From positions 1 to 37,465 of the IMG/VR virus record IMGVR_UViG_3300045044_000058: a stretch of 37,465 nucleotides of DNA; one strand, given 5' to 3'. Position 1 is the stretch's first letter; every line of letters starts with the position of its first letter. Both the position numbers and the translations under genes were made by a program. Under the pieces are notes generated by a model, which had not been told where the DNA came from, searched no databases, and saw nothing but the letters and a program-made list of their open reading frames with translations. Shown here one piece after another: positions 106 to 37,465 of this stretch. The DNA comes from a virus.

Positions 106-182
106 GGTAAAATGGTAGCGAGGCAACGAGTGGTGGAACACTCATCGCCTCTCACCAACACACGACCGTGGGAGGGTCGCAC
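106..182 (+). promoter_or_regulatory. Homing-endonuclease leader RNA, copy 1
   Basis: This is one of three copies of a ~76-nt leader that precedes endonuclease genes in this window. After the shared GGTAAAATGGTAGCGAGG block, hairpin 1 pairs GAGGC (120-124) with GCCTC (147-151) and GAGTG (128-132) with CACTC (139-143), closed outside by TGGT (113-116) with ACCA (154-157). Hairpin 2 pairs CGACC (163-167) with GGTCG (175-179). Its 7-nt loop GTGGGAG and the 3' arm hold the Shine-Dalgarno. The GTG start follows the second stem after 3 nt. The pairing is direct sequence observation supported by covariation with copies 2 and 3; a translational control role is inferred. Confidence 0.8.
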
Positions 183-818
183 GTGGCTACTGACCAAACT
201 ATCATTACGGCGCGAGAAGCTTTCGATACAGGTCTCACGCGTTACTTTACAGGCGTTCCGTGCCGCAATGGCCATATTGCAGAACGACGGACAAATGGCC
301 GTTCCTGCGTGGAATGCGCCAAAATCAATCACAAAAAGCATCGCGATAATCCAAAGGCTAAGGCGCGAACGCGTGAAAGCACTCAGCGTTGGCGAGAACA
401 GAATCGCGAAAAATATCGGGAATGGCAACGGCGCTATCGAAAAGGCAAGCGTACTCCACGTGTACGCAAGACGGTATCGCCAGCCGAATATCGGTTAAGA
501 CAAGATGGCAAATGGGTTCTTAGATACCACAAGATTCTTGAGAAGAGCGCTGGACGTCCCAAGCCGGATGCATGCGAAGTTTGCGGCGGAAAATCCAAGC
601 GAATCTGTTTTGACCACTGTCACAAATCGGGCAAATTTCGCGGATGGCTCTGCTATCCATGCAATACCGCTTTGGGTCTGTTGAAAGATTCCACGGCGAG
701 GTTCAAAGGCCTAATCCAATATCTGGAGAAACACAATGGCGCACATCACAGCGGACACGAGAAACAAACTGAAGTCCAGTCAGTTCGGCCTTCCGAGCCA
801 GCGGAAATATCCGCTTGA
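183..818 (+). CDS. HNH homing endonuclease, recombination endonuclease VII type (HEG1)
   Basis: The 211-residue protein has an N-terminal Cys/His block (YFTG-PC-NGH...CVEC), a basic helical middle and a C-terminal endonuclease VII-type zinc/HNH motif (CEVCGG...CFDHCHKSG-FRGWLCYPCN). This family makes double-strand breaks and often acts as a free-standing homing enzyme. I chose GTG 183 because it sits 3 nt after leader hairpin 2 and aligns with the MAT start of the HNH gene at 8941; an in-frame GTG at 168 lies inside the hairpin. The gene is absent from the other allele of this locus at the right end of the window. Its 3' end overlaps the next gene by 83 nt. Confidence 0.88.
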   Translation: MATDQTIITAREAFDTGLTRYFTGVPCRNGHIAERRTNGRSCVECAKINHKKHRDNPKAKARTRESTQRWREQNREKYREWQRRYRKGKRTPRVRKTVSPAEYRLRQDGKWVLRYHKILEKSAGRPKPDACEVCGGKSKRICFDHCHKSGKFRGWLCYPCNTALGLLKDSTARFKGLIQYLEKHNGAHHSGHEKQTEVQSVRPSEPAEISA

Positions 819-1491
819 TACGAAGGGCAGAGCAATCAATGCTAAAGCGCGGGCAACCCAGATGGTCGCAAAAGGCAAACTTTCAGCCGCAGCAGCAGCT
901 AAAGTAAAGGCGCGCGCCAATCGTAAACTCGGCAAGGCGAACAACGCCATCGGCACAGAGCAGAACTTGAATGCGGCCCGGCCCGGAATCAATCTGGCAG
1001 CTCTCGCGGCTGCCCGGCGCAGGCGTGCACTCGGCGGTGTCGCACAGCGGCTGCCGCGCTTCGGCGCTCCTGCGGTCGGCGTGACGCAGGATCTCAATGC
1101 CGCGAGCCTCCGTGGCAATCCGGATAACCGCAATCCGGCGACGCCATACCAGGAAGATTCCAACAACTGGAAGAGCACACCTTACACACAGCGAGGTAAG
1201 TGGATGAACAATTCACAAGGTACAGGCCGCGCCGACGAATCGGGCGACGGCAAGAGTTACAAAGGACAGCCGCAGTTTGGCGGTACGGAAGCGCCCAGTG
1301 CCAATAAGAAAGCACAACCGAAGTTCGGCGGCACGGAGAATGTGGGCAAGAGCTTCAAAGGCCAGGAGCAATTCGGCGGCACGGGCATGGGCAACGGCAA
1401 CGGACGCGGGAACGGCAATGGCGGATCGCGGCGCTATGCGAATGGATCAAGTTCGTTCGACTCTATGAAATCGATGATCCGCGATCATTAA
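736..1491 (+). CDS. Conserved phage protein with KYP...NAKARA motif and Gly-rich tail
   Basis: The 251-residue protein begins with a block (LKSSQF-LP--RKYP followed by AINAKARATQ and a basic helix) that I recall from many small phage proteins of unknown function. The C-terminal third carries FGGT repeats (QPQFGGT, QPKFGGT, QEQFGGT) and a GNGNG run, so it is probably disordered. The start codon lies inside HEG1, with a GGAG eight bases upstream. A second allele of the gene (36890-37465) has a clearly diverged N-terminal half but is identical from base 1168 on. This suggests flanking sequence was replaced together with HEG1 insertion. Confidence 0.7.
   Translation: MAHITADTRNKLKSSQFGLPSQRKYPLDTKGRAINAKARATQMVAKGKLSAAAAAKVKARANRKLGKANNAIGTEQNLNAARPGINLAALAAARRRRALGGVAQRLPRFGAPAVGVTQDLNAASLRGNPDNRNPATPYQEDSNNWKSTPYTQRGKWMNNSQGTGRADESGDGKSYKGQPQFGGTEAPSANKKAQPKFGGTENVGKSFKGQEQFGGTGMGNGNGRGNGNGGSRRYANGSSSFDSMKSMIRDH
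1168..1266. repeat. Terminal repeat, left copy (equals 37367-37465)
   Basis: Ninety-nine bases are identical to the last 99 bases of the window. Upstream of 1168 the two copies are only similar. Together with the 1-68 repeat it defines the overlap by which the contig closes into a circle. Confidence 0.9.
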
Positions 1492-8940: not shown

Positions 8941-9675
8941 ATGGCTACCGATATTCCATCAGAAACGCGCGCAATCATCACGCGCTACGAAGCAAAAAAG
9001 CGTGGACTTGCCCATTACTTCACCGGCAAACCATGCCCACATGGACACCTGGCAGAGCGCTCGGTTACGTACAAGGAATGCATGGAGTGCAGCCGGATAC
9101 GTTCGCAGAAGCGTTATTGGAACGATCCGGCGAAGGACAATGCACGTCGAAAGGCAACGCGACACGCTGATCCCGAGAAAGCAAGAGAAGCTAGCCGGAA
9201 AGCATCTGAGGCAAACCGGACAAAAAATGAGCAGAAGGTCTATGAGTACAACCGGGCTTGGAATTTAGCGCATCCGGAGACTGTTAAAGCTGCTAGGCTC
9301 CGTTGGGAGGAAAGGCACAAGCAACGGCTGCAAGACGACCCAGACTATGCGGACATTTGGAGAGAAAAGAACAAACAGAAGCAACGAAAGTTCAGAGAGA
9401 AAAAGGCAGCTCGTCCGAGACCAGACCATTGCGAGCTTTGCGGAAAACAATCCGAAGAGATCTGCTTTGATCACTGCCATCAGACCAATAGCTTTCGGGG
9501 CTGGTTATGCCACCAATGCAATCAGGCGCTCGGTTTGGCAAACGATTCGCCGGAACTCTTGCACAAGATGGCTCAGTATTTAGAGCAGCAGAAATTGGCA
9601 AATGATGAATCTCCTGATCTTTTACGGCGGATGGCGCAGTATCTCGAACAGCACAACGGAAAACTAATCGAATGA
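8941..9675 (+). CDS. HNH homing endonuclease, recombination endonuclease VII type (HEG2)
   Basis: The 244-residue protein is a relative of HEG1. It has N-terminal YFTGKPCPHGHLAERS...CMEC, a long basic helical linker rich in Lys/Arg (residues about 60-150), and C-terminal CELCGK...CFDHCHQTNSFRGWLCHQCNQALGL. After the nuclease domain a ~20-residue segment is duplicated (NDSPELLHKMAQYLEQ and NDESPDLLRRMAQYLEQ). It sits between the coat gene and the next virion gene, a frequent place for free-standing homing endonucleases, and carries the shared leader RNA. Confidence 0.88.
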   Translation: MATDIPSETRAIITRYEAKKRGLAHYFTGKPCPHGHLAERSVTYKECMECSRIRSQKRYWNDPAKDNARRKATRHADPEKAREASRKASEANRTKNEQKVYEYNRAWNLAHPETVKAARLRWEERHKQRLQDDPDYADIWREKNKQKQRKFREKKAARPRPDHCELCGKQSEEICFDHCHQTNSFRGWLCHQCNQALGLANDSPELLHKMAQYLEQQKLANDESPDLLRRMAQYLEQHNGKLIE

Positions 9676-24599: not shown

Positions 24600-25748
24600 A
24601 TGAGCAAACCCAAGCGCTCTTACGGCAAGGGCAGCGTGCGCGAGCGTCGACCGGGACATTGGCAACTGCGTTATGACGGTCAATCCAAAATGGCCGCCGT
24701 CCGCACGCAACGGCAGGCGGAAGACGAACTGGCCAAATGGAAGACGGAAATGGATGATACGCCCCCACTCAGTCTCAGCATGAATGATCTCTTCGATGAC
24801 TACCGCGCCGAATACCTCCGGAAACAGAACACGGATATTGAGCATGTCGATCATCGGTTGAAACATCTGCGGCCTGCGATTGGCGGTATGGATCCGCGGC
24901 TGTTCAAACAGCGGGATATGGACCGTTACGCCGCCGCGCGCCTACAGGAATTGACGCATCTGGGAACGCTGACCAGCGTCAGCACGATCAATCGCGAGAT
25001 TGCCGTCGTTTCCGCCTCGATGCGATTAGCCGCGGAGGAATTGCACCGCATCGTGCGCTTCAAGAAGTATCCCGAGGAGAAGTTTATCCGCCAGGGCCTC
25101 GTCTCGCCGGAACTCTACCGCCAGATGCTCTACGAGCTCGCCGATCACGTGAAGCCGTTTTGGGTACTTTCCTATTACACTGGCGTCCGCAAGGGAGAGC
25201 TACTTCTGTTGCGCTGGGACTGGCTGGATTGGGAACAATGGCTGATCCGCGTGCCGCCCTTCTTTCAGGGCGAGCGCATCACCAAGAACGGCAAGCCGCA
25301 TCTGATTCTGCTCTACTGCGCCGAAATGCGCGAAACCATCAAGTTCGCCTGGCAGCGGCGCGATCCGGCGAATCCCTGCCTGTTTCAACGTAACGGCGAA
25401 TGCGTCAAAAGCTTCCGCACGGCGTTTGAGGAAGCCCGTCGGCGCTGCAGCCAGCCAGACCTGATTTTCCACGATCTGCGCCGCACGGCCGCCCGCAATA
25501 TGCGCCGCCACGGGATCTCCGAAGAGGTGGCGATGAAGATCGGCGGCTGGTGTACGCCCGCCATTTTCCGCCGCTACCGCATTCTGGACGAAATGGAGCT
25601 GGTCGAAGCCGGCCAGCACCTGGCGCGCGTCATCGACGGGAGTGCAGAAAAATATTTGTCAACAACATTTGGCCCAGAGTTGGCCCGAGACGAGCCATCC
25701 CATCCTTCAGGGCCCGATTTAAGTAATGAACCCAAGCTAAAGCAATGA
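24600..25748 (+). CDS. int: Tyrosine recombinase (phage integrase)
   Basis: The 382-residue protein has an N-terminal DNA-binding region starting with SYGKGSVRERRPGHWQLRYDG, a core-binding helical domain, and a catalytic domain. The catalytic residues are visible: R in TGVRKGELLLLRW, K in TKNGKPH, H-x-x-R in HDLRRTAARN, G-x-W in KIGGWCTPAIF and Y in RRYRILDE. It recombines attP with attB. The attP with tRNA-Leu sequence lies directly downstream and a 27-nt repeat is embedded in its 3' end. Structured leader upstream. Confidence 0.92.
   Translation: MSKPKRSYGKGSVRERRPGHWQLRYDGQSKMAAVRTQRQAEDELAKWKTEMDDTPPLSLSMNDLFDDYRAEYLRKQNTDIEHVDHRLKHLRPAIGGMDPRLFKQRDMDRYAAARLQELTHLGTLTSVSTINREIAVVSASMRLAAEELHRIVRFKKYPEEKFIRQGLVSPELYRQMLYELADHVKPFWVLSYYTGVRKGELLLLRWDWLDWEQWLIRVPPFFQGERITKNGKPHLILLYCAEMRETIKFAWQRRDPANPCLFQRNGECVKSFRTAFEEARRRCSQPDLIFHDLRRTAARNMRRHGISEEVAMKIGGWCTPAIFRRYRILDEMELVEAGQHLARVIDGSAEKYLSTTFGPELARDEPSHPSGPDLSNEPKLKQ
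25661..25687 (+). repeat. 27-nt direct repeat flanking attP, copy 1
   Basis: AACAACATTTGGCCCAGAGT and the following TGGCCCG recur at 25917-25943 with one mismatch. This copy lies in the integrase coding sequence. Each copy contains two TTGGCCC-like boxes in tandem. The pair brackets attP at 256-bp spacing, as integrase arm-type sites would. Confidence 0.65.
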
Positions 25749-25760
25749 AAGGATTTGTTC

Positions 25761-25830
25761 TGGTGCCGAAGGAGGGAGTTGAACCCTCATGTTTCGCTTG
25801 AAACGCGGGATTTTGAGTCCCGTGCAGGTG
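25761..25830 (-). other. attP: attP core: 3' part of tRNA-Leu(CAA)
   Basis: Read on the minus strand this is the 3' two thirds of a class II tRNA: anticodon stem CGGGA/TCCCG with loop CTCAAAA (anticodon CAA), a long variable arm (GTTTC-AAGC-GAAAC), the T-arm GAGGG-TTCAACT-CCCTC, acceptor CTTCGGC, discriminator A and encoded CCA. The D-arm is only partly present and no 5' acceptor strand complementary to CTTCGGC exists. It is therefore not a tRNA gene but the segment that restores the host gene after integration. It lies 12 bases beyond the integrase stop. Confidence 0.85.
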
Positions 25831-25993: not shown

Positions 25994-26416
25994 ATGCCGG
26001 AAGTTGTAGCAGCCACCACACGCGAGAGAACCAAGATAGCCGAGCGAGCCACGCGAACTGAGAGGACCAAAACTCCGGAGCGAGCCACCTCAAAAGAGAG
26101 CACCACGGGAAATGAGCGTACGAATGGCCGCATCAACGCCAAACGTAAGGGGAGCCGCGCGGAGCACCGCTCCATCAGGCTCCTCGAATCCTTAGGTTAT
26201 TCCTGTACGCGCGCCGCCGGCTCACTCGGCGCTTGGGACGTGATCGGCGTCGGTTCCACCGATTTCGTCCTAGTGCAAGTCAAAAGTAACGATCCTCCTG
26301 GACCGGCTGAGCGAGAATCCCTGCGCAATTTCGTCGCACCGCCCAACGCCAAAAAGCTCATTCACATCTGGAAGGATCGCCAGCGCACTCCCGACGTTAG
26401 AGAACTCGGAGTCTGA
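25994..26416 (+). CDS. Hjc-like PDDEXK resolvase/nuclease with an array-encoded N-terminus
   Basis: The 140-residue frame has two parts. Residues about 9-42 are translated 18-nt repeats (ERTKIAERATRT, ERTKTPERATSK). From about residue 45 it is a Holliday-junction-resolvase-like domain: KRKGSRAEHRSIRLLESLGYS, then RAAGSLGAWDVIGVGSTDFVLVQVKS, with the E, D and xVxVKS residues expected for the PDDEXK core. No in-frame start lies between the array and the domain, so the array is either translated or has displaced the native start. It is followed two bases later by the replication-type gene. Confidence 0.75.
   Translation: MPEVVAATTRERTKIAERATRTERTKTPERATSKESTTGNERTNGRINAKRKGSRAEHRSIRLLESLGYSCTRAAGSLGAWDVIGVGSTDFVLVQVKSNDPPGPAERESLRNFVAPPNAKKLIHIWKDRQRTPDVRELGV
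26006..26119 (+). repeat. 18-nt repeat array 3 (5 units)
   Basis: Units begin at 26024: GAGAGAACCA, GAGCGAGCCA, GAGAGGACCA, GAGCGAGCCA, GAGAGCACCA, each followed by an 8-nt spacer. A degenerate entry box (AGCAGCCA plus 8 nt) precedes them and the array exits through GAAATGAGCGT. The same entry and exit forms bound arrays 1 and 2 at 33.6-35.6 kb. No transposase gene is next to this copy. Confidence 0.85.
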
Positions 26417-28136: not shown

Positions 28137-28357
28137 CGAACGAACTGCGCGGAATCCTGAAAGCGGCTCGCCGCGATGGCGCGGTGTTACATGGAACGTG
28201 TTGGGGCATGCGGCGCAATGGAGCGCCGTGGCGGTATCGGCTGGTATTGCAGGATCGCGCACAACAGCGGCTATGGTCACGATCGATGGACTGGCCGGAG
28301 TATCTTGAGGCGGTCAGCTACTGGATGAGCCTTGAGCACAGGAGAAAAGCGGCGTGA
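28133..28357 (+). CDS. Small hypothetical protein upstream of dcm
   Basis: The 74-residue basic protein starts at ATG 28133 (MTNELRGILKAARRDGAVLH...) in an ATGA overlap and ends in a GTGA overlap with the methyltransferase start. It is rich in Trp and Arg (RRNGAPWRYRLVLQDRAQQRLW). Unknown function. Confidence 0.55.
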   Translation: MTNELRGILKAARRDGAVLHGTCWGMRRNGAPWRYRLVLQDRAQQRLWSRSMDWPEYLEAVSYWMSLEHRRKAA

Positions 28358-29061
28358 CCTTCGGCAGCCTCTTCAGCGGTATTGGCGGCCTCGATCTCGG
28401 GCTCAAACGCGCTGGCTTCGAGTGCCGCTGGCAGGTCGAGATCGATGAGTTCTGTAGAAAACTACTGAGCAAGCATTGGCCCGAGGTGCCGAAATATGGC
28501 GACATCACGAAATGTTATGGCACTGAAGATTTACGCGGATCGTGCCGCACGGACAAGCCCAAGCTTGGATGGGACGAAAGGATGAATGGAAAACTAAGAA
28601 AGCTCACGTCGGAACAAGCCGAAAATGCAGTATGCCTTTACAATTTGGGACTGTCTTTGCAGCACATCGCCGACTTCTACGAAATATCTCGCCAGGCAAT
28701 GTGGGATTTGTTGCGGCGACGCACGAAGATGCGCTCTCAACAGCGATATGGCGCAGAGAATCATTTTTACCGCTCTGGAAAAACTGCAGATGATCATGCT
28801 CAAAACCTGATTGAGGAAGCGGTCGAAAAAGGACTGATAAAGCGCAAGATGATATGTGAAACATGCGGCGATGAACCGGCAAAATTCAAAGACGGCAGAA
28901 CGGGCATACAAGCCCATCATTGCGACTACAACAAGCCATTGGAGGTGATGTGGCTATGCCAGAAATGCCATCACGAATGGCACAAGACGAATCGGGCAAT
29001 CCCCAAGGAGGTGCGACAGGAACTCACGGCGGCAGATATGCTCGCTGGCGGGTTCCCGTAG
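28354..29061 (+). CDS. N-terminal part of a cytosine-C5 methyltransferase with an in-frame HNH insertion
   Basis: The frame starts at GTG 28354 with FGSLFSGIGGLDLGLKRAGF (motif I, AdoMet binding) and continues to YGDIT at about residue 52. It is then interrupted by an HNH endonuclease and resumes with LTAADMLAGGFP. It stops with TAG exactly before the catalytic cysteine of the GGFPCQ motif. The next bases (29066 on) encode CQDLSQAGKQQGF in the +1 frame after seven extra bases. As written, the methyltransferase cannot be made as one protein without frameshifting or bypass. Confidence 0.8.
   Translation: MTFGSLFSGIGGLDLGLKRAGFECRWQVEIDEFCRKLLSKHWPEVPKYGDITKCYGTEDLRGSCRTDKPKLGWDERMNGKLRKLTSEQAENAVCLYNLGLSLQHIADFYEISRQAMWDLLRRRTKMRSQQRYGAENHFYRSGKTADDHAQNLIEEAVEKGLIKRKMICETCGDEPAKFKDGRTGIQAHHCDYNKPLEVMWLCQKCHHEWHKTNRAIPKEVRQELTAADMLAGGFP
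28513..29020 (+). mobile_element. HNH endonuclease insertion inside the methyltransferase gene
   Basis: ATG 28582 would start a free-standing enzyme: MNGKLRKLTSEQAENAVCLY, then a helix-turn-helix (LSLQHIADFYEISRQAMWDLL), ENHFYR, and the nuclease motif CETCGD...IQAHHCDYNKPLEVMW with LCQKCHHEWHK. It is more A/T-rich than the flanking methyltransferase DNA. It does not carry the shared two-hairpin leader; a weak GGCAC/GTGCC stem (28519-28546) lies ahead. The edges are approximate: they are set where methyltransferase similarity stops and resumes. Confidence 0.8.
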
Positions 29062-29108
29062 GACGTGCCAGGACCTCTCGCAAGCCGGAAAGCAGCAGGG
29101 ATTCCATC

Positions 29109-29915
29109 ATGACGACGGCACGCTCACTCGCAGCGGCTTGTGGTTTGAATTCGCCCGCCTTGTTGGGGAGCTTCGACCGCGATTCGTTCTTGCTGAGAAC
29201 GTCCCAGGGCTGCTTGTTCCAGGCGGAATATCCCGAGTGGTCGGAGAGCTGGCCCGACTTGGGTATGTGGGATGCTGGCGCTGTCTACGAGCTTCGGAGT
29301 TCGGAGCCAACCATCTCCGCAAGCGGGTCTTCGTTGTGGCCCACCGCGCAGACGACGGATGCAGCTTCGGCGGCGCGGCACACCACGCAAACGGGTATCA
29401 TGCATCCGGGTACGACACTGACGGACGCGATCCGGATGTGGGCTATGCCGCAAGCGCACGACCAGCATGCGGGGAATCCCGAGAGAGTGAACCGTTTCGG
29501 AACGGAGCACGGCGGACGGAACTTGGCGGACGACGTGACGCCGTGGAAGACGCCGCACGGCATGAGCAACCGGGATGCGAAGGGGAAAGTGGGCGGCTGC
29601 GGCGGCGGGGAGTTCGGGAAGCAGGCGAACCACTGGCCGACGCCCGATGTGCCGAACGGCGGCAGGACGCTCTCGCCCGAAGTGATTTGGCCGACGCCTT
29701 CGGCGCGCGACTGGAAATCGGAAACGGGCCTGGAGAATCGCACCGAACAGCATGCGCCGAACCTGAGCCAGTACGTTTACCTCACTTCGCTCCCGGACCC
29801 AGCGATCCCAGATGGCCCTGGATCCTGCGGGAGCGGCCCGACCTCGCACCGGCGCTTGAACCCGCGCTTCGTGGAGTGGCTGATGGGACTCCCGATTGGC
29901 TGGAGCGAACTCTGA
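29109..29915 (+). CDS. Second reading frame over the methyltransferase C-terminal half, with its own conserved-looking motifs
   Basis: From ATG 29109 a 268-residue frame runs to 29915 in a different phase from the methyltransferase. It contains FLLRTSQGCLFQAEY, WSESWPDLGMWDAGAVYEL and several WPT(P) motifs (SLWPTA, HWPTPDV, WPTPSARDWKS), and ends RLNPRFVEWLMGLPIGWSEL. I recall these as typical of C-terminal parts of phage methyltransferase-linked proteins. The same bases in the other frame encode equally typical methyltransferase motifs, so both frames appear real. This is either overprinting or two forms of one family. Confidence 0.5.
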   Translation: MTTARSLAAACGLNSPALLGSFDRDSFLLRTSQGCLFQAEYPEWSESWPDLGMWDAGAVYELRSSEPTISASGSSLWPTAQTTDAASAARHTTQTGIMHPGTTLTDAIRMWAMPQAHDQHAGNPERVNRFGTEHGGRNLADDVTPWKTPHGMSNRDAKGKVGGCGGGEFGKQANHWPTPDVPNGGRTLSPEVIWPTPSARDWKSETGLENRTEQHAPNLSQYVYLTSLPDPAIPDGPGSCGSGPTSHRRLNPRFVEWLMGLPIGWSEL

Positions 29916-30016
29916 GCAACCGCACGAAGCGCCTGTCGCGATTAGGCAACGCGGTGGTGCCGGATTGCGCTCAGTTCATGGGCGAGGCGATTGTGCGGTT
30001 TCTGGAGGACGCGTGA
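29138..30016 (+). CDS. C-terminal part of the cytosine-C5 methyltransferase
   Basis: The reading frame is open from 29066 (CQDLSQAGKQQGF); the first ATG is 29138. It contains RPRFVLAENVPGLL (ENV motif), FGANHLRKRVFVVA (motif VIII region), a long variable target-recognition part, and near the end LEPALRGVADGTPDWLERTL with RLSRLGNAVVPD (motifs IX/X). The enzyme would methylate cytosine in DNA, but its first half with motif I lies in another frame upstream. The stop overlaps the next GTG. Confidence 0.75.
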   Translation: MWFEFARLVGELRPRFVLAENVPGLLVPGGISRVVGELARLGYVGCWRCLRASEFGANHLRKRVFVVAHRADDGCSFGGAAHHANGYHASGYDTDGRDPDVGYAASARPACGESRESEPFRNGARRTELGGRRDAVEDAARHEQPGCEGESGRLRRRGVREAGEPLADARCAERRQDALARSDLADAFGARLEIGNGPGESHRTACAEPEPVRLPHFAPGPSDPRWPWILRERPDLAPALEPALRGVADGTPDWLERTLSNRTKRLSRLGNAVVPDCAQFMGEAIVRFLEDA

Positions 30017-31832: not shown

Positions 31833-32102
31833 TCAGCGGTGATGTTCCGCCACATGAAGTTTGAGCGCGTTTTCAAAACGTTCGCCCAAGATGTCGATTT
31901 TCTTGTCCAGGGCATCGATCTTGGCGGAAACATTGATTTCCAATAGTTCGATGCGTTTGCTGAGGGTTGCTTCCAGTGTTTTCATTTCGGCGCGTAGCGT
32001 TTCTTTGGCTTCGTTGATACGGCTATTGCTATAAATCAGCGAGGAAATCGGGATGATGATAGCAAGGCAAGCGGTGAGCAATTGCGCATCTGTCAGTTGC
32101 AT
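31833..32102 (-). CDS. Membrane-anchored coiled-coil protein
   Basis: The 89-residue leftward product has one N-terminal hydrophobic segment (LLTACLAIIIPISSLIY) followed by a long charged coil (LRAEMKTLEATLSKRIELLE, AKIDALDKKIDILGERFENA). The design resembles small phage proteins of the xhlA/coiled-coil membrane type. It lies divergent to the terminase genes across a 155-nt gap containing TATAGT at about 32166. Confidence 0.6.
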   Translation of the reverse strand: MQLTDAQLLTACLAIIIPISSLIYSNSRINEAKETLRAEMKTLEATLSKRIELLEINVSAKIDALDKKIDILGERFENALKLHVAEHHR

Positions 32103-32257
32103 GCTTTCAGTCTAAAGTGTCTGTTTCGGCGAAATTCCCTAGCCGTCCCAGTACCTTTGCGTGTATAGTATTGGTAATTTGCGGCGATCGCGAGCCGCGT
32201 TACCAACTCTGCGCGGTTTTACCGCTGGAAAAGCTTCCAGCCTCCCACCTGGGCCGC

Positions 32258-32566
32258 ATGCCCGAATCGTCTCTAAAATCCAGTCGGATCGCCATTCTCA
32301 ATCCATTGCCGGGTGCGGCCCGTTCGCTCGGTTATGAGCATGCCAGACGCTATGTCAAGCAAGGGCGGGCGCAATGGGTGAACCGGGACGCTATCCGTTT
32401 CCTGCCGGAACATCACCGCCATCAGAGCGCGGAGCGTCTACTGCGCCAGCAGACCGCAGCCGGCTACGATGCGCGCGGCCTACTCACCATAGAGGAAATC
32501 AAACAAGTACCCGTAACGGGGGAAGCGGCGTTATTGCTGGTGAGACGAAGTGCAGTGCAGCGCTAA
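32258..32566 (+). CDS. Hypothetical protein upstream of the small terminase
   Basis: I chose ATG 32258 (MPESSLKSSRIAILNPLPGA). The 102-residue product has LGYEHARRYVKQGRAQWVNRDAIRFL, which looks like a small nucleic-acid-binding or RHH-type fold. It overlaps the small terminase by 17 nt, so the two are co-translated. An upstream ATG (32117) is possible but would cover the intergenic region. Confidence 0.5.
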   Translation: MPESSLKSSRIAILNPLPGAARSLGYEHARRYVKQGRAQWVNRDAIRFLPEHHRHQSAERLLRQQTAAGYDARGLLTIEEIKQVPVTGEAALLLVRRSAVQR

Positions 32567-32912
32567 ATCCTCGCGCACGGGGAAGCCGTGCAAACGGCAC
32601 GCCATCCCCGGCGGCACCGTGTGCCGGGTCCATGGCGGGAGTGCCCCGCAGGTGAAACAGAAGGCCGCCGAGCGCATTGCCTTTCTGAAGTGGAAAGCGC
32701 TCGAGCGGGTCGAATACTATATCGATCGGCCGAGCCAGTATCCGGTGCAGTCGTTTGCAGCCGCGAAAGACATTCTGGACCGCGATCCGGAAACGAGCGC
32801 CGTGCATAAGATCGAGGACGTGACGCCGGCTGACCGGATGACGCAGGACGAGCGGATGGCACGGATTCGGCAACTGGAAAAACAGCTGGGCAGGACGGAG
32901 CAGGTGCAGTGA
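32550..32912 (+). CDS. Terminase small subunit-like protein
   Basis: The 120-residue protein begins MQCSAKSSRTGKPCKRHAIP followed by GGTVCRVHGGSAPQVKQKAA. The C-x-A-x-S--TG-PC---A--G---C--HGGSAPQVK pattern is typical of small proteins directly upstream of phage large terminases and is often annotated as terminase small subunit. The C-terminus is helical. It starts with GTG and its stop overlaps the TerL start. DNA recognition is inferred from position. Confidence 0.7.
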   Translation: MQCSAKSSRTGKPCKRHAIPGGTVCRVHGGSAPQVKQKAAERIAFLKWKALERVEYYIDRPSQYPVQSFAAAKDILDRDPETSAVHKIEDVTPADRMTQDERMARIRQLEKQLGRTEQVQ

Positions 32913-33646
32913 CGGCGCAAGCGCAAAACGCCGCGCTCGCCGAAGAGTACGAGGAACTGCTCACTGCTGAGTGTAAATACCGCGAGCGCACGAAGATCGC
33001 ACGCTATTACCCCGATTCCGGGCCGTACCGCCGCGAACTCTATCCCAAGCATCTGCGCTTTTTCGCGCTCGGCAAAGAGTATCGGGAACGCATGTTGATG
33101 GCCGCAAATCGCGTGGGAAAATCAACCGTCGGCTGCTACGAAACCACCGTGCACGCCACGGGGCGTTATCCGGACTGGTGGGAAGGGAAGCGCTTCGAGC
33201 ATCCGATTTCTTGTATCGTGGCAGGCGACACGAACCTGACGACGCGCGACATTCTGCAGACGAAGCTGTTCGGCAAGTTAAGCCGCGCGCCGGGCGATTC
33301 GATCGCGGAAGCGGTCGGCTTGGGCACAGGCATGATGCCGTATGAATGTATTTTCCGCGCGACGCGCCGGCCAGGCTTGCCGGACGCGCTCGAGAGCGTG
33401 CTGATTCATCACGTTTCGGGTGGTTACTCGATGATCAAGCTGCGCTCCTTCGAGCAGGGGATTGAGGCGTTTCAAGGCACGGAAGAAGATCTGATCTGGC
33501 TGGACGAGAATTTCCCGCAAAACATCTATTCCGAGTGCATCACGCGCCTAATGACGACCGAAGGACATCTGCTTCTAACTTTCACGCCAATCCAGGGCGT
33601 CACCGCGGTGATCCGGGAGTTCATGGACAAGGCGTATCGGGGTTAA
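32909..33646 (+). CDS. terL: Terminase large subunit, ATPase half (split gene)
   Basis: GTG 32909 opens 245 residues containing LMAANRVGKST (Walker A-type), DLIWLDEN (Walker B with catalytic Glu) and LLLTFTPIQG (coupling motif). This is the packaging motor ATPase. The frame ends with TAA 18 codons after the coupling motif, where the linker to the nuclease domain should begin. The nuclease half resumes at 35595 after a 1.9-kb insertion. Whether two proteins assemble or the insertion is removed from RNA cannot be told. Confidence 0.88.
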   Translation: MTAQAQNAALAEEYEELLTAECKYRERTKIARYYPDSGPYRRELYPKHLRFFALGKEYRERMLMAANRVGKSTVGCYETTVHATGRYPDWWEGKRFEHPISCIVAGDTNLTTRDILQTKLFGKLSRAPGDSIAEAVGLGTGMMPYECIFRATRRPGLPDALESVLIHHVSGGYSMIKLRSFEQGIEAFQGTEEDLIWLDENFPQNIYSECITRLMTTEGHLLLTFTPIQGVTAVIREFMDKAYRG

Positions 33647-33650
33647 CAGG

Positions 33651-33981
33651 GCTGGGAGCCAGGGACGTGGAGAGAAACCATTGAAGTAGAGCGAGCCAAG
33701 AAGCCCGAGAGAACCATGGCGGTCGAGCGAGCCACTAATGCAGAGAGGACCAGAGGAGTCGAGCGAGCCAATCTCGTTGAGAGTGCCATGTGCAGAGAGC
33801 GAGCCAATTCTGGAGAGAGAACCATCGGAGATGAGCGAGCCAAGCTGGCGGAGAGAACCACGCAAGGGGAGCGAGCCAATTGCCCGGAGAGAACCAGAGT
33901 TCGTGAGCGAGCCACAATACCAGAGAGAACCAGGATCGATGAGCGAGCCAATACGCCAGAGAGTACCACTAGAATGAGCGT
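33651..33981 (+). repeat. 18-nt repeat array 1 (17 units)
   Basis: Alternating GAGAGnnCCA (A) and invariant GAGCGAGCCA (B) boxes, each with an 8-nt spacer, start at 33670 after a degenerate entry box (CTGGGAGCCA plus 8 nt) and end at 33975 before GAGCGTATG. Nine A and eight B boxes. The first A box has one extra A. Spacers of units 10-13 (AGCTGGCG, CGCAAGGG, ATTGCCCG, GAGTTCGT) reappear in the same order in array 2. Confidence 0.92.
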
Positions 33982-34788
33982 ATGTCTCTAACCTTAGACC
34001 CGATCTCCCGTTTATCCCGCGATCTGGCCCAGGCGGCCGTATCGCTGTCCATCCCCGAAGTGCGGTACTTAGTCGATGCCTACTATCTGATTCAGGCGAA
34101 CCGCATCGTCGCCTCGAATCAGATCCGGGCCTTGACTGAATCCGCGGAGCCGCACGAAGTCATCACCTGGCTCGCGCAACAGAATGACGTGCTCGAGAAC
34201 CAGATCAAGCGGGCGCTGGACCGCTGGACGGAGGGGCAGGAGCTCGGTGTCTGGTGCAAAGGCATCACGGGCATCGGGCCGGTGATCAGCGCCGGATTGA
34301 TGGCCCATATCGATATCGCACGCGCGCCGACGGTAGGCCATATCTGGTCGTTTGCCGGCTTGAATCCGGAGCAGAAGTGGGAGAAAAAAACCAAGCGGCC
34401 CTGGAACGCGCAGCTCAAAACCTTGTGTTGGAAGATTGGCGAATCGTTCGTCAAGGTGTCGGGGAATCCGAAGAGCACGTACGGGCGTCTGTACCGCGAG
34501 CGCAAGGAATACGAGGAACGGCGCAATGGCGCGGGCGAGTGCGCGCAGCAGGCGAGCGAGATTCTGAGCAATAAGAAATTCGGCAAGGACACCGAGGCCT
34601 ATAAGCATTTGAGTGCGGGGAAACTGCCGCCGGCACATGTTCACGCGCGTGCCAAGCGCTATGCGGTGAAGATCTTTTTAGCGCACTATCATGAGACGGC
34701 GTATCGGCTTCATTTTGGCACCGAACCCCCGAAGCCCTACGCGATTGCGATTTTGGGTCACGCCCATGAAATCGCGCAGGGAGCTTAA
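33982..34788 (+). CDS. IS110-like protein (Transposase_20 domain only)
   Basis: The 268-residue protein starts at the array exit (GAGCGT-ATG). Residues about 92-110 read GITGIGPVISAGLMAHID, a helix-hairpin-helix; then IWSFAGLNPEQKW, RPWNAQLKTLCWKIGESFVKVS, YGRLYRERKEYEE and RAKRYAVKIFLAHYHETAY. This is the Transposase_20 (IS116/IS110/IS902) type domain. The N-terminal RuvC-like DEDD domain of true IS110 transposases is not recognisable in the ~90-residue N-terminus. The stop codon lies in the entry box of array 2. Confidence 0.75.
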   Translation: MSLTLDPISRLSRDLAQAAVSLSIPEVRYLVDAYYLIQANRIVASNQIRALTESAEPHEVITWLAQQNDVLENQIKRALDRWTEGQELGVWCKGITGIGPVISAGLMAHIDIARAPTVGHIWSFAGLNPEQKWEKKTKRPWNAQLKTLCWKIGESFVKVSGNPKSTYGRLYRERKEYEERRNGAGECAQQASEILSNKKFGKDTEAYKHLSAGKLPPAHVHARAKRYAVKIFLAHYHETAYRLHFGTEPPKPYAIAILGHAHEIAQGA

Positions 34789-35585
34789 GCCACCACCGTA
34801 GAGAGAACCCAAAAGGCCCGAGCGAGCCAGATAAAGTGAGAGAACCAAATAAGGCGAGCGAGCCACAGCAGTAGAGAGAACCAAACTCCGAGAGCGAGCC
34901 ACTGACAGCGAGAGGACCAGGCGCAAGGAGCTTGAGCCAGTTCCAACGAGAGCACCAAGAACGAGGAGCGAGCCAATTGCCGAGAGAGAGCCACATTCCG
35001 CGAGCGAGCCATAAGCGCGGAGAGCACCATGAAGGTTGAGCGAGCCATGTTCGACGAGAGAACCAGGGTCGCAGAGCGAGCCAAGTCATAGAAGAGAACC
35101 AGATCCGGAGAGCGAGCCATCGAGGCCGAGAGAACCACGAGAAGCGAGCGAGCCAAGGACTTGGAGAGCACCAAGGATAGCGAGCGAGCCACAGGACCCG
35201 AGAGAACCAGGAAACGTGAGCGAGCCAGTTCCAACGAGAGCACCAAGAACGAGGAGCGAGCCATGAATACAGAGAAGCACCACAGATCATGAGCGAGCCA
35301 TTGAGAGTGAGAGCGCCAGAGTGAGCGAGCGAGCCATGTTGGCCGAGAGAACCATAATCGCCGAGCGAGCCAGAATGTCGAGAGAGAACCATTGGATGTG
35401 AGCGAGCCAAGCTGGCGGAGAGAACCACGCAAGGGGAGCGAGCCAATTGCCCGGAGAGAACCAGAGTTCGTGAGCGAGCCATTTTCGTCGAGAGAACCAT
35501 GGATGGTGAGCGAGCCACAGTCCTTGAGAGCACCATCGTCGAAGAGCGAGCCATTCCTTATGAGAGAACCACAGCGCATGAGCGT
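34781..35585 (+). repeat. 18-nt repeat array 2 (43 units)
   Basis: Forty-three units of alternating A and B boxes (22 A, 21 B) run from 34801 to 35579, after the entry box GAGCTTAAGCCA plus 8 nt and before GAGCGTTCC. Unit 8 has an entry-like box (GAGCTTGAGCCA), as if two arrays had fused. Units 8-9 and 24-25 share the spacers GTTCCAAC and AGAACGAG. Four units have one or two extra bases, so the reading phase shifts repeatedly; the repeat is conserved as nucleic acid rather than protein. Confidence 0.92.
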
Positions 35586-35594
35586 TCCTAAGCT

Positions 35595-36314
35595 ATGAGC
35601 CGAGCGTTAATCACTGCGACGTGGGATGATGTGCCGCATCTCACGCCGCAAGCCAAGGCCGACCTTCTAGCGAGTTATTTACCGCACGAACTGGAAGCGC
35701 GCACCAAAGGCGTCCCCTCCATCGGGCACGGCGCAGTCTATCCGCTCGGCCAGGATTCCTACACTTGCGATCCGTTCCCAATCCCGGCGCATTTTCCGCG
35801 CGCCTATGGGCTGGATGTCGGGTGGAATTGGACGGCAGCGGTATGGTGGGCCTGGGATCGCGAAAATGATCAGGACTGGATCTATCGGGAGTATCTGCGC
35901 GAGCAGGCACCGCCCGATATCCACGTGGCGGCGATCAAGGCGGCCGGCGACTGGATCCCCGGCTGCATCGATCCAGCAGCCAAGCAGCGCAGCCAGGTCG
36001 ATGGGCGCAATCTGCTCGCGGAATACGATTCGCTCGGGCTGAAGATGACGCTCGCCGACAACAGCGTGGAAGCGGGCGTCCTGCGCGTCTACCAGCGGAT
36101 GGCGGCCGGCAAGCTCAAAATTTTCCGCATCTGCACGAGGCTCTTAGAAGATCTGCGTTTCTATCATCGCGACGACTCGGGGCGCATTGTGAAGGAAGGC
36201 GACCACCTTGCGGACGCGATGCGCTATGTCTCGATGACCGGGCCACAGACCGCCAAAGTGAAAGTATTGCCGAAGCCGAACGGAGCGCTGCAGCGACAGT
36301 GGGCGTGGGGATGA
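35595..36314 (+). CDS. terL: Terminase large subunit, nuclease half (split gene)
   Basis: The 239-residue product starts MSRALITATWDDVPHLTPQA and continues ASYLPHELEARTKGVPSIG, GAVYPL, then RAYGLDVGWNWTAAVWWAWD (first acidic nuclease residue) and HLADAMRYVSMTGP near the end (last acidic residue). This is the RNase H-fold headful/packaging nuclease of terminase. The first ATG follows the array exit by few bases and lacks a clear Shine-Dalgarno. The ATPase half ends at 33646. Confidence 0.88.
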   Translation: MSRALITATWDDVPHLTPQAKADLLASYLPHELEARTKGVPSIGHGAVYPLGQDSYTCDPFPIPAHFPRAYGLDVGWNWTAAVWWAWDRENDQDWIYREYLREQAPPDIHVAAIKAAGDWIPGCIDPAAKQRSQVDGRNLLAEYDSLGLKMTLADNSVEAGVLRVYQRMAAGKLKIFRICTRLLEDLRFYHRDDSGRIVKEGDHLADAMRYVSMTGPQTAKVKVLPKPNGALQRQWAWG

Positions 36315-36318
36315 GCAC

Positions 36319-36519
36319 ATGACCGACAAAGAAAAATACGGCACGCTGACGGAGTCCGAGCTCGACGCGTTCGATCAGCAGGCGCGGCAATGTTTCGAAT
36401 CGAGTTTGCGGATGAGCCAGGCGCTACGCCAGGCGACGAAGAAAGAAACGGATCCTACGCCCGGATCGGAAGAAGCGAAGGCGGCGATCAGGGACGCGAT
36501 CAAGCAGGGAAACGAATGA
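36319..36519 (+). CDS. Small hypothetical protein downstream of terL
   Basis: The 66-residue acidic helical protein (MTDKEKYGTLTESELDAFDQ...) starts five bases after terL and overlaps the next ATG (ATGA). Function unknown. Confidence 0.6.
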   Translation: MTDKEKYGTLTESELDAFDQQARQCFESSLRMSQALRQATKKETDPTPGSEEAKAAIRDAIKQGNE

Positions 36520-36656
36520 TACCAGCGGTCCATTTAATCCTTTTAGCCTTCGCGTTCGTGCTATTCGTCTTGGCTGGTTGCAATATCTCGCATCCAAAGG
36601 TCAATCTGGGCTGGCTCGGCCTGGCGTTTTTGACGCTCGCCTTGTGGCTGCATTAA
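36516..36656 (+). CDS. 46-residue membrane protein
   Basis: ATG 36516 in an ATGA overlap gives MIPAVHLILLAFAFVLFVLA followed by GCNISHPKVNLGWLGLAFLTLALWLH, two hydrophobic helices joined by a short turn. The pattern AFVLFVLA-----P-VNLGWLGLAFL-L is a common tiny phage membrane protein family of unknown function. Confidence 0.7.
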   Translation: MIPAVHLILLAFAFVLFVLAGCNISHPKVNLGWLGLAFLTLALWLH

Positions 36657-36673
36657 CAGCTAGTACGAAATGA

Positions 36674-36877
36674 ATGAGACGAATCGCCGCGCTGGCGCTT
36701 TTATGGCTGCTGCCAGCGCGCGCCGGATTGTTCGATATGCGGCTGCATGTCTGGGCGAAGGTGATTACGCTGCACGGCGTCGAGTTATTGCTAGTCATTC
36801 GCGGTGCACCGCACAAATTGACGGATCGGGAGCGGGAAGTCTTGAACCGCATCGCCCATGAAATGAACACGCTCTAG
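36674..36877 (+). CDS. Small protein, complete copy of the gene cut at position 1
   Basis: The 67-residue protein starts MRRIAALALLWLLPARAGLF (hydrophobic, signal-like) and ends LTDREREVLNRIAHEMNTL. An alternative start is the ATG of MRLHVWAKVI. The last 65 bases recur at the left end of the window. Confidence 0.6.
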   Translation: MRRIAALALLWLLPARAGLFDMRLHVWAKVITLHGVELLLVIRGAPHKLTDREREVLNRIAHEMNTL

Positions 36878-36880
36878 GAA
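36813..36880. repeat. Terminal repeat, right copy (equals 1-68)
   Basis: Sixty-eight bases identical to the left end. After this point the right copy reads GGAAAATCT and ATG, the uninterrupted junction to the next gene. Confidence 0.9.
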
Positions 36881-36889
36881 GGAAAATCT

Positions 36890-37465
36890 ATGGCTGAATT
36901 ATCGACGGATACCCGTAATAGGCTCAAAAGTTCTCAATTCGCGTTACCTGCATCGAGAAAATATCCAGTTTTCGATCGGGCACACGCAGTCAATGCGAAG
37001 GCGAGAGCCACACAGCAAGTGAAAAAAGGCAAGTTGTCACCAGCAACAGCGGCCAAAATTAAAGCGCGTGGCAACCGCGTTTTAGGCAAGGCGAATAACA
37101 ACACCGGCACAGAGCAGAACCTGAATGCGGCCCGGCCCGGAATCAATCTGGCAGCGCTCGCAGCAGCGCGTCGGCGGCGGCAAGCAGCAGGGATGGCAGC
37201 GCGCGCCATAGCTCCGCGGCGTGCGATGATCGCAGGCGTTGTCCGGCCAACAGGTTTCGGCATGCCCGCGACGGGCGTGACCCAGGATCTGAATGCCGGC
37301 GCTGTGCGTGGTGGCAACCGGGACAATCTGAATCCGAACACGCCGTATCAGGAAGACATCAATTCTTGGAAGAGCACACCTTACACACAGCGAGGTAAGT
37401 GGATGAACAATTCACAAGGTACAGGCCGCGCCGACGAATCGGGCGACGGCAAGAGTTACAAAGGA
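36890..37465 (+). CDS. KYP-motif protein, endonuclease-free allele (cut by window end)
   Basis: The frame MAELSTDTRNRLKSSQFALP is open to the last base (192 codons). It matches the gene at 736-1491 throughout but differs at many positions and has small insertions until base 37367, where it becomes identical. A GGAAGG ribosome-binding site precedes the ATG, unlike the other allele where HEG1 occupies this place. Confidence 0.8.
   Translation, partial: MAELSTDTRNRLKSSQFALPASRKYPVFDRAHAVNAKARATQQVKKGKLSPATAAKIKARGNRVLGKANNNTGTEQNLNAARPGINLAALAAARRRRQAAGMAARAIAPRRAMIAGVVRPTGFGMPATGVTQDLNAGAVRGGNRDNLNPNTPYQEDINSWKSTPYTQRGKWMNNSQGTGRADESGDGKSYKG
37367..37465. repeat. Terminal repeat, right copy (equals 1168-1266)
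   Basis: The last 99 bases of the window equal 1168-1266, closing the contig through the endonuclease-free allele. Confidence 0.9.

What the first reader, a model, noticed from the sequence alone, without database searches (positions are those of the whole stretch)
33647..35594. IS110-like gene between two 18-nt repeat arrays splits the terminase large subunit
The terL ATPase half ends at 33646 and its nuclease half begins at 35595. Between them lie only array 1, a Transposase_20-domain gene and array 2. The arrays alternate a degenerate box GAGAGnnCCA and an invariant box GAGCGAGCCA at an 18-nt period, with unique-looking 8-nt spacers. Each array has the same entry (degenerate AGCCA box plus 8 nt) and exit (ATGAGCGT or close). 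This is not CRISPR, not a normal insertion sequence, and not known to me. The gene is essential for packaging, so the insertion must be tolerated by split-protein function, RNA splicing or DNA excision. IS110 elements use structured non-coding RNAs from their ends, so the arrays may be RNA or DNA substrates of the enzyme.
Basis: partly seen in the sequence, partly recalled or inferred. Interest (0 to 1): 0.92.

Follow-up and report, generated by a model that had tools for sequence, protein, structure and literature searches.

The report
RNA-guided TIGR-TasA cassette inside split terminase
A phage carries a recently described RNA-guided DNA-binding system (TIGR-TasA: short guide-RNA arrays plus one guide-binding protein) in the gap between the two genes of its DNA-packaging enzyme, and comparison with relatives shows that the enzyme was already two genes before the system arrived.

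Summary
The "IS110-like gene between two arrays" is a TIGR-Tas system (Faure et al. 2025, PMC12045711). The gene is a TasA, a stand-alone Nop domain whose predicted fold matches TasR and TasH best. The arrays are dual-repeat TIGR arrays with edge repeat GAGCGAGCCA, loop repeat GAGAGnnCCA, 8-nt spacers and 36-nt units, and with truncated edge repeats at both ends.

The cassette did not split terL. All seven nearest TerL relatives are split at the same hinge with own stop and start codons. One has only 7 nt between the halves; six carry unrelated small ORFs there, and none of the seven has a TIGR array there. Both halves evolve under purifying selection. A sister phage carries the same cassette elsewhere, next to an intact, unrelated terL. 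The cassette is therefore mobile cargo in an inter-gene slot.

The guides have no self-target; natural targets remain unproven. One duplicated guide matches HK97-type capsid genes exactly in 28 viral contigs, which is suggestive only. Phages with 97-98% identical tasA have almost completely different spacers. New member of a known kind.

The parts
32909..33646 (+). terL-N: terminase ATPase half as a gene of its own, Walker A (MAANRVGKST) and Walker B (DLIWLDE) present
   Evidence: Terminase_6N E 3.6e-16; phrog_31467 over residues 20-245; purifying selection
33657..33980 (+). TIGR array 1: 9 predicted tigRNA units, begins with 5'-truncated edge AGCCA, ends with 3'-truncated edge GAGCG
33982..34788 (+). 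tasA: stand-alone Nop-domain protein of 268 aa, no nuclease domain
   Evidence: Pfam Transposase_20; phmmer to TasR 9mty E 1.6e-13 and TasH 21kl E 2.8e-9, IS621 only 0.28; AlphaFold2 pLDDT 88.7; Foldseek top hits TasR/TasH E about 1e-7
34788..35584 (+). TIGR array 2: 22 predicted tigRNA units; two units shared with array 1, one unit present twice
35595..36314 (+). terL-C: terminase RNase H-like nuclease half with its own ATG
   Evidence: Terminase_6C E 2.5e-12; same ATG in all seven nearest relatives
26011..26118 (+). TIGR array 3: 3 predicted tigRNA units with the same repeats and truncated ends, 7.5 kb from tasA, read in frame by the start of ORF 25994-26416
32550..32912 (+). probable small packaging gene just upstream of terL (terS position); context only
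   Evidence: phrog_3678 (unknown function) E 3e-11; orthologs upstream of terL in relatives G003, G004, G007
24600..25748 (+). tyrosine integrase, shows that the phage is temperate; context
   Evidence: phrog_1 integrase E 4e-38
25761..25825 (+). probable attP: 65 nt resembling the end of a tRNA gene, between integrase and array 3
   Evidence: up to 89% identity in Acidobacteriota genomes; ARAGORN finds no complete tRNA in the window; the tRNA reading is from general knowledge

Best explanation
The insert is a TIGR-TasA system. The three arrays are most likely transcribed with the phage operon and cut in the middle of each edge repeat (GAGCG|AGCCA) into 36-nt tigRNAs of the form AGCCA-A8-GAGAGnnCCA-B8-GAGCG. 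TasA binds them as a dimer through its Nop domain. Each loaded complex would bind double-stranded DNA in which spacer A pairs with one strand and spacer B with the other (target A + 0-2 nt + reverse complement of B) and block it without cutting, since TasA has no nuclease. The targets are probably foreign DNA, such as competing phages or other mobile elements. The cassette is cargo in the intergenic slot of a terminase that was already encoded by two genes (ATPase, nuclease). Shown here: the anatomy, the protein's family and fold, the older terL split, the different location of a sister cassette, and the lack of self-targets. Inferred from the literature: tigRNA processing and guided DNA binding. 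Inferred by me: the non-self role (about 0.5).
For: Repeat layout, 36-nt unit, 8-nt spacers and truncated edges match the published TIGR definition. TasA is nearest to TasR/TasH by sequence and by predicted fold. IMG/VR relatives of the gene mostly have a 34-36-nt period array beside it, and the exact edge-N8-loop-N8-edge pattern occurs in 115 IMG/VR stretches; of the 70 contigs among the 80 listed, 59 carry TasA. terL: 44 of 114 tree rows are split, and the window's clade of 8 is entirely split with SH-aLRT 100. The empty site is L171, with 7 nt between stop and ATG. Differences per codon position 0.21/0.11/0.51 (N) and 0.13/0.09/0.45 (C) against L169 show constraint on both halves. Sister phage G001 has the cassette elsewhere and an intact unrelated TerL. 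No match of any guide in the own genome at up to 1 mismatch, and no excess over shuffled pairs at 2-3 mismatches.
Against: Expression, processing and DNA binding are not shown for this locus. The rho-independent terminator typical after published arrays is absent: arrays 1 and 2 run directly into the next start codon. The non-self role is not demonstrated; no confident natural target was found. A DNA- or RNA-level role in the phage's own cycle (integration, packaging) is not excluded.
Confidence: 0.87

Rival explanations
1. An IS110-type transposon inserted in terL, with the arrays as its bridge-RNA or DNA substrates.
For: The gene matches Pfam Transposase_20 and its fold is distantly like IS621 (E 1e-3).
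Against: No DEDD domain in the 268-aa protein; TasR/TasH score far better by sequence and fold; IS110 elements carry one bridge RNA, not alternating 18-nt arrays (PMC12045711); relatives have the terL split without any element.
Confidence: 0.03
2. The insert interrupts a single terL gene and is removed at RNA or DNA level (intron, intein, programmed excision) to give intact TerL.
For: The break lies at a domain hinge and the two halves together cover a whole TerL.
Against: Rfam finds no intron in 32000-37465. In L171 the halves are separated by only a stop codon, 7 nt and an ATG. All seven nearest relatives and many distant ones keep stop and start with unrelated ORFs between. A complete podovirus genome, MW202785.1, annotates two 'large terminase protein' genes.
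Confidence: 0.03
3. TIGR-TasA serves the phage's own cycle: guided regulation of its own genes, or a DNA-bending aid to its integrase.
For: Faure et al. propose integrase help as one possibility for TasA (PMC12045711); array 3 lies about 190 bp from the probable attP and near the integrase.
Against: No guide matches the phage's own 37 kb at up to 1 mismatch, and looser matches equal shuffled pairs; spacers turn over almost completely between near-identical phages, unlike guides fixed on conserved own sites. The window may lack a small part of the genome.
Confidence: 0.15
4. The arrays are protein-coding hexapeptide repeats (ER[AT]xxx) rather than RNA elements.
For: 18-nt periods leave long open frames, e.g. 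33716-33991, and array 3 is in frame in ORF 25994-26416.
Against: Units of 37 and 38 nt shift the frame within arrays 1 and 2; the repeats match TIGR edge and loop repeats; spacers vary freely.
Confidence: 0.02

Closest known systems
TIGR-TasA, dual-repeat array type (Faure et al. 2025, PMC12045711)
   Same: Stand-alone Nop protein; alternating edge and loop repeats of 10 nt; 8-nt spacers (16 nt in total, as stated for Salicola phage SpTIGR); 36-nt unit; truncated edge repeats at array ends; arrays up- and downstream of the gene; phage genome.
   Different: Sits between the two genes of a split terminase; 34 units where 5-15 are usual; no terminator after the arrays; a third mini-array lies 7.5 kb away.
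TasR and TasH (PDB 9mty, 21kl, 9w02 and others)
   Same: Same Nop domain by sequence and predicted fold.
   Different: No RuvC or HNH nuclease domain here, so no cutting is expected.
IS110/IS621 recombinases
   Same: Shared Nop-like RNA-binding domain (Pfam Transposase_20).
   Different: No DEDD domain, no bridge RNA, no transposon ends; the similarity is distant (E 0.28 by sequence, 1e-3 by fold).
Two-gene TerL as in podovirus ct2G2228 (MW202785.1)
   Same: ATPase and nuclease halves are separate adjacent genes.
   Different: There about 130 nt lie between the genes (no gene annotated in the gap), here 1.95 kb of TIGR-TasA.

Membership tests
TIGR-TasA | Solo Nop-domain protein related to TasR/TasH | tested here: met
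TIGR-TasA | Two distinct alternating 8-12-nt repeats with short spacers (about 9 nt; 8 in SpTIGR) | tested here: met
   10-nt edge and loop repeats, 8-nt spacers
TIGR-TasA | 36-nt unit; array begins and ends with truncated edge repeats | tested here: met
   all three arrays
TIGR-TasA | Array next to the tas gene and co-occurring with it in other genomes | tested here: met
   59 of 70 array contigs carry TasA
TIGR-TasA | Rho-independent terminator after the array (typical, not obligatory) | tested here: not met
   arrays 1 and 2 end 1-10 nt before the next start codon; no terminator-like site on the + strand at the array ends
TIGR-TasA | Processing to 36-nt tigRNAs bound by Tas | not testable with these tools
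   needs small-RNA sequencing
TIGR-TasA | tigRNA-guided binding of DNA with A and B on opposite strands | tested here: inconclusive
   binding itself cannot be tested here; the target search gave no confident target, one guide has a suggestive family of exact gap-0 matches
IS110 transposase | N-terminal DEDD (RuvC-like) catalytic domain | tested here: not met
   268-aa, almost all-helical Nop protein; Pfam hit is Transposase_20 alone
IS110 transposase | Single bridge RNA from the element's ends | tested here: not met
   three alternating-repeat arrays instead; Rfam: no hit
CRISPR-Cas | One repeat of about 25-40 nt with spacers of similar length and cas genes | tested here: not met
   repeat geometry; no cas-like hit among the window proteins scanned
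Self-splicing intron in terL | Group I or II intron RNA and a continuous frame after removal | tested here: not met
   Rfam none; own stop and start also in relatives with only 7 nt between

The most novel reading that the evidence does not exclude
Phage TIGR-TasA cassettes are fast-evolving guide repertoires against competing phages. Spacers turn over almost completely between near-identical phages, and the guide carried twice here (GTTCCAAC/AGAACGAG) is aimed at the conserved VPTSFY codons of HK97-type major capsid genes. This would be a first natural target class for TIGR systems.
Probability: 0.15. Interest if true: 0.82.

Novelty: new member of a known kind. Interest (0 to 1): 0.45.

Why it matters
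It settles what a strange-looking structure is and removes the puzzle of an essential gene broken by an insertion: the terminase is a two-gene enzyme whose gap is a repeatedly used cargo slot. It also bears on two questions left open by the TIGR-Tas discoverers, how arrays change and what they target. It provides sets of near-identical phages with almost unrelated spacers, a multi-array genome with a remote mini-array, and one candidate target family.

Tried and rejected
Self-targeting of the phage genome in four geometries: nothing at up to 1 mismatch, no excess over shuffled pairs at 2-3. Targets in about 2.4 Mb of related phage DNA: no excess (7 against 3-15). Pooled test of 299 guides from many TasA phages: real 140 against 77-122 shuffled for A.rcB, but 36 of the 140 come from loci fetched with one of these very guides, so there is no excess. 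Guides of the L003-L006 group against about 4.5 Mb: 46 against 44-70. IMG/VR scans of three duplicated guides plus one mispaired control: 36, 25, 55 and 42 stretches. Gap-0 matches make up 60 of 116 for real guides and 16 of 42 for the control, but this excess is largely one family of 28 capsid genes, so it may be a single chance event in an abundant family. No other guide hits those capsid contigs. In 396 Acidobacteriota genomes the capsid guide has 1 match and the AGCTGGCG guide 9, none showing a pattern. A match of the AGCTGGCG guide in contig L353 (tail gene) was judged chance. TasA has no match in the GenBank phage collection. Literature searches found no description of a TIGR cassette in a terminase and none of a two-gene TerL of this type, but only open-licence papers were searched.

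Full report
What is there. terL is present as two genes, 32909-33646 (Terminase_6N) and 35595-36314 (Terminase_6C), and between them lie only array 1, one gene and array 2. The alternating boxes are real: 50 box-N8-box pairs in the insert against at most 1 in 300 shuffles. A third array with the same boxes, entry and exit lies at 26011-26118, just downstream of the integrase and probable attP, and is read in frame by the start of a small ORF of unknown family.

What the parts are. Cutting the arrays in the middle of GAGCGAGCCA gives units of 36 nt: AGCCA-8 nt-GAGAGnnCCA-8 nt-GAGCG. There are 9, 22 and 3 of them; every array begins with AGCCA and ends with GAGCG. [quoted passage not shown]). 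The gene product (268 aa) is closest by sequence to TasR (E 1.6e-13) and TasH (E 2.8e-9), with IS621 at 0.28. Its AlphaFold2 model (pLDDT 88.7) matches eleven TasR/TasH chains before any IS110-type recombinase. It has no nuclease domain and is therefore a TasA.

Family context. Eighty IMG/VR relatives of TasA were fetched, and most carry a 34-36-nt period array beside the gene. The exact edge-loop-edge pattern of this window was found in 115 IMG/VR stretches. The 80 listed lie on 70 contigs (my count), of which 59 carry TasA; most of the 11 without it are short contigs or have the array at a contig end. Remote or dispersed arrays are not unique to this phage: G031 has one about 9 kb from its tasA, and several large phages have many. 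In genome assemblies, relatives occur in Acidobacteriota (including the isolate KBS 96), Halomonas and others, but in only 1 of 396 Acidobacteriota genomes sampled.

The terL question. In 159 loci (the window included) holding both halves of this TerL family, 94 are fused and 65 were called split at the hinge; a few of the 65 may be contig ends or frameshifts. In 21 loci at least 40 nt separate the halves. All seven nearest relatives are split, with the same ATG (MSRAL or MTRAL ...TATW). L171 has a stop codon, 7 nt and the ATG, while its close sister L172 has 427 nt of unrelated sequence there, and the others have 273-677 nt of small ORFs; none has a TIGR array at that place (on the larger contigs). 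A tree of 114 TerLs needs 15 changes between fused and split, at least 4 of them forced by well-supported branches, and the window's clade of eight is all split. Both halves show low divergence at codon positions 1 and 2 and high at 3, and the Walker motifs and nuclease domain are intact, so the two-gene enzyme is most likely functional. A sister phage (G001, major capsid 79% identical, TasA 80%, same repeats) carries its cassette between two other genes and has an intact, unrelated terL of 495 aa. The cassette and the terL split are therefore independent; the phage used an existing slot.

How it probably works. By homology, tigRNAs are released by a host RNase with TasA's help, and the complex binds DNA at A + rc(B) across both strands (PMC12045711). 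The A + rc(B) order is my deduction from the published cut positions (8-nt 3' overhangs). Because arrays 1 and 2 have no terminator and abut the start codons of tasA and terL-C, processing of the edge repeats would also cut the operon mRNA at these points; this is inference. There is no self-target, so regulation of the own genome is unlikely. In five contigs of one phage group (two of them identical) with 97-98% identical tasA, array content is almost wholly different, with a few shared blocks; the window and G001 share no spacer. Such turnover fits guides that follow changing foreign DNA, or neutral recombination, better than fixed own targets.

Targets. Random expectation is high for 16 nt in IMG/VR, so raw hits mean little. 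One guide, present twice in array 2, has 30 exact gap-0 matches, of which 28 are in one protein family, HK97-type major capsid proteins (identified by eye from the sequences), on the codons for VPTSFY. The largest cluster for a mispaired control was 5. Because that motif is conserved in an abundant family, one chance event could produce this, and no second guide hits the same contigs. I treat it as a lead.

Verdict. A new member of TIGR-TasA with an unusual address and a large guide set. The striking claim, an essential gene broken by an unknown element, does not hold; the recurrent two-gene terminase and the rapid spacer turnover are the parts worth following.

Noticed in passing
window 32909-33646 and 35595-36314; L089, L095-L098, L118, L136, L169-L174, L177-L181, L195-L197, L236-L246: This TerL family has been split into separate ATPase and nuclease genes many times (44 of 114 tree rows, 15 changes, at least 4 forced), with assorted small ORFs in the gap.
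   Followed up: yes
L003, L004, L005, L006, L007: Phages with 97-98% identical tasA have almost entirely different TIGR spacers with a few shared blocks, partly out of order: very fast array turnover.
   Followed up: partly
window 34935-34965 and 35223-35253; L402-L456: The duplicated guide GTTCCAAC/AGAACGAG matches HK97-type major capsid genes exactly in 28 viral contigs.
   Followed up: partly
window 26011-26118: A mini TIGR array of three units far from tasA, about 190 bp from the probable attP, in frame within ORF 25994-26416.
   Followed up: partly
L513, L517, L520 (one 56.8-kb contig); L531, L545, L560 (one 82.5-kb contig); L525, L548, L570 (one 116-kb contig): Large phages with several small TIGR arrays scattered over the genome, some on both strands.
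   Followed up: no
window 28354-30016: A C5 DNA methyltransferase gene appears interrupted: its N-terminal part is fused to an HTH and HNH-like stretch (28354-29061) and the rest seems to continue at about 29138-30016.
   Followed up: no
window 168-818, 8941-9675 and 2437-2919: Two endonuclease VII-like ORFs and one LAGLIDADG ORF, probable homing endonucleases.
   Followed up: no
window 736-1491 and 36890-37465: Two related genes (phrog_16160) near the two window ends; gene order in relatives suggests the window is a circularly permuted, nearly complete genome.
   Followed up: partly
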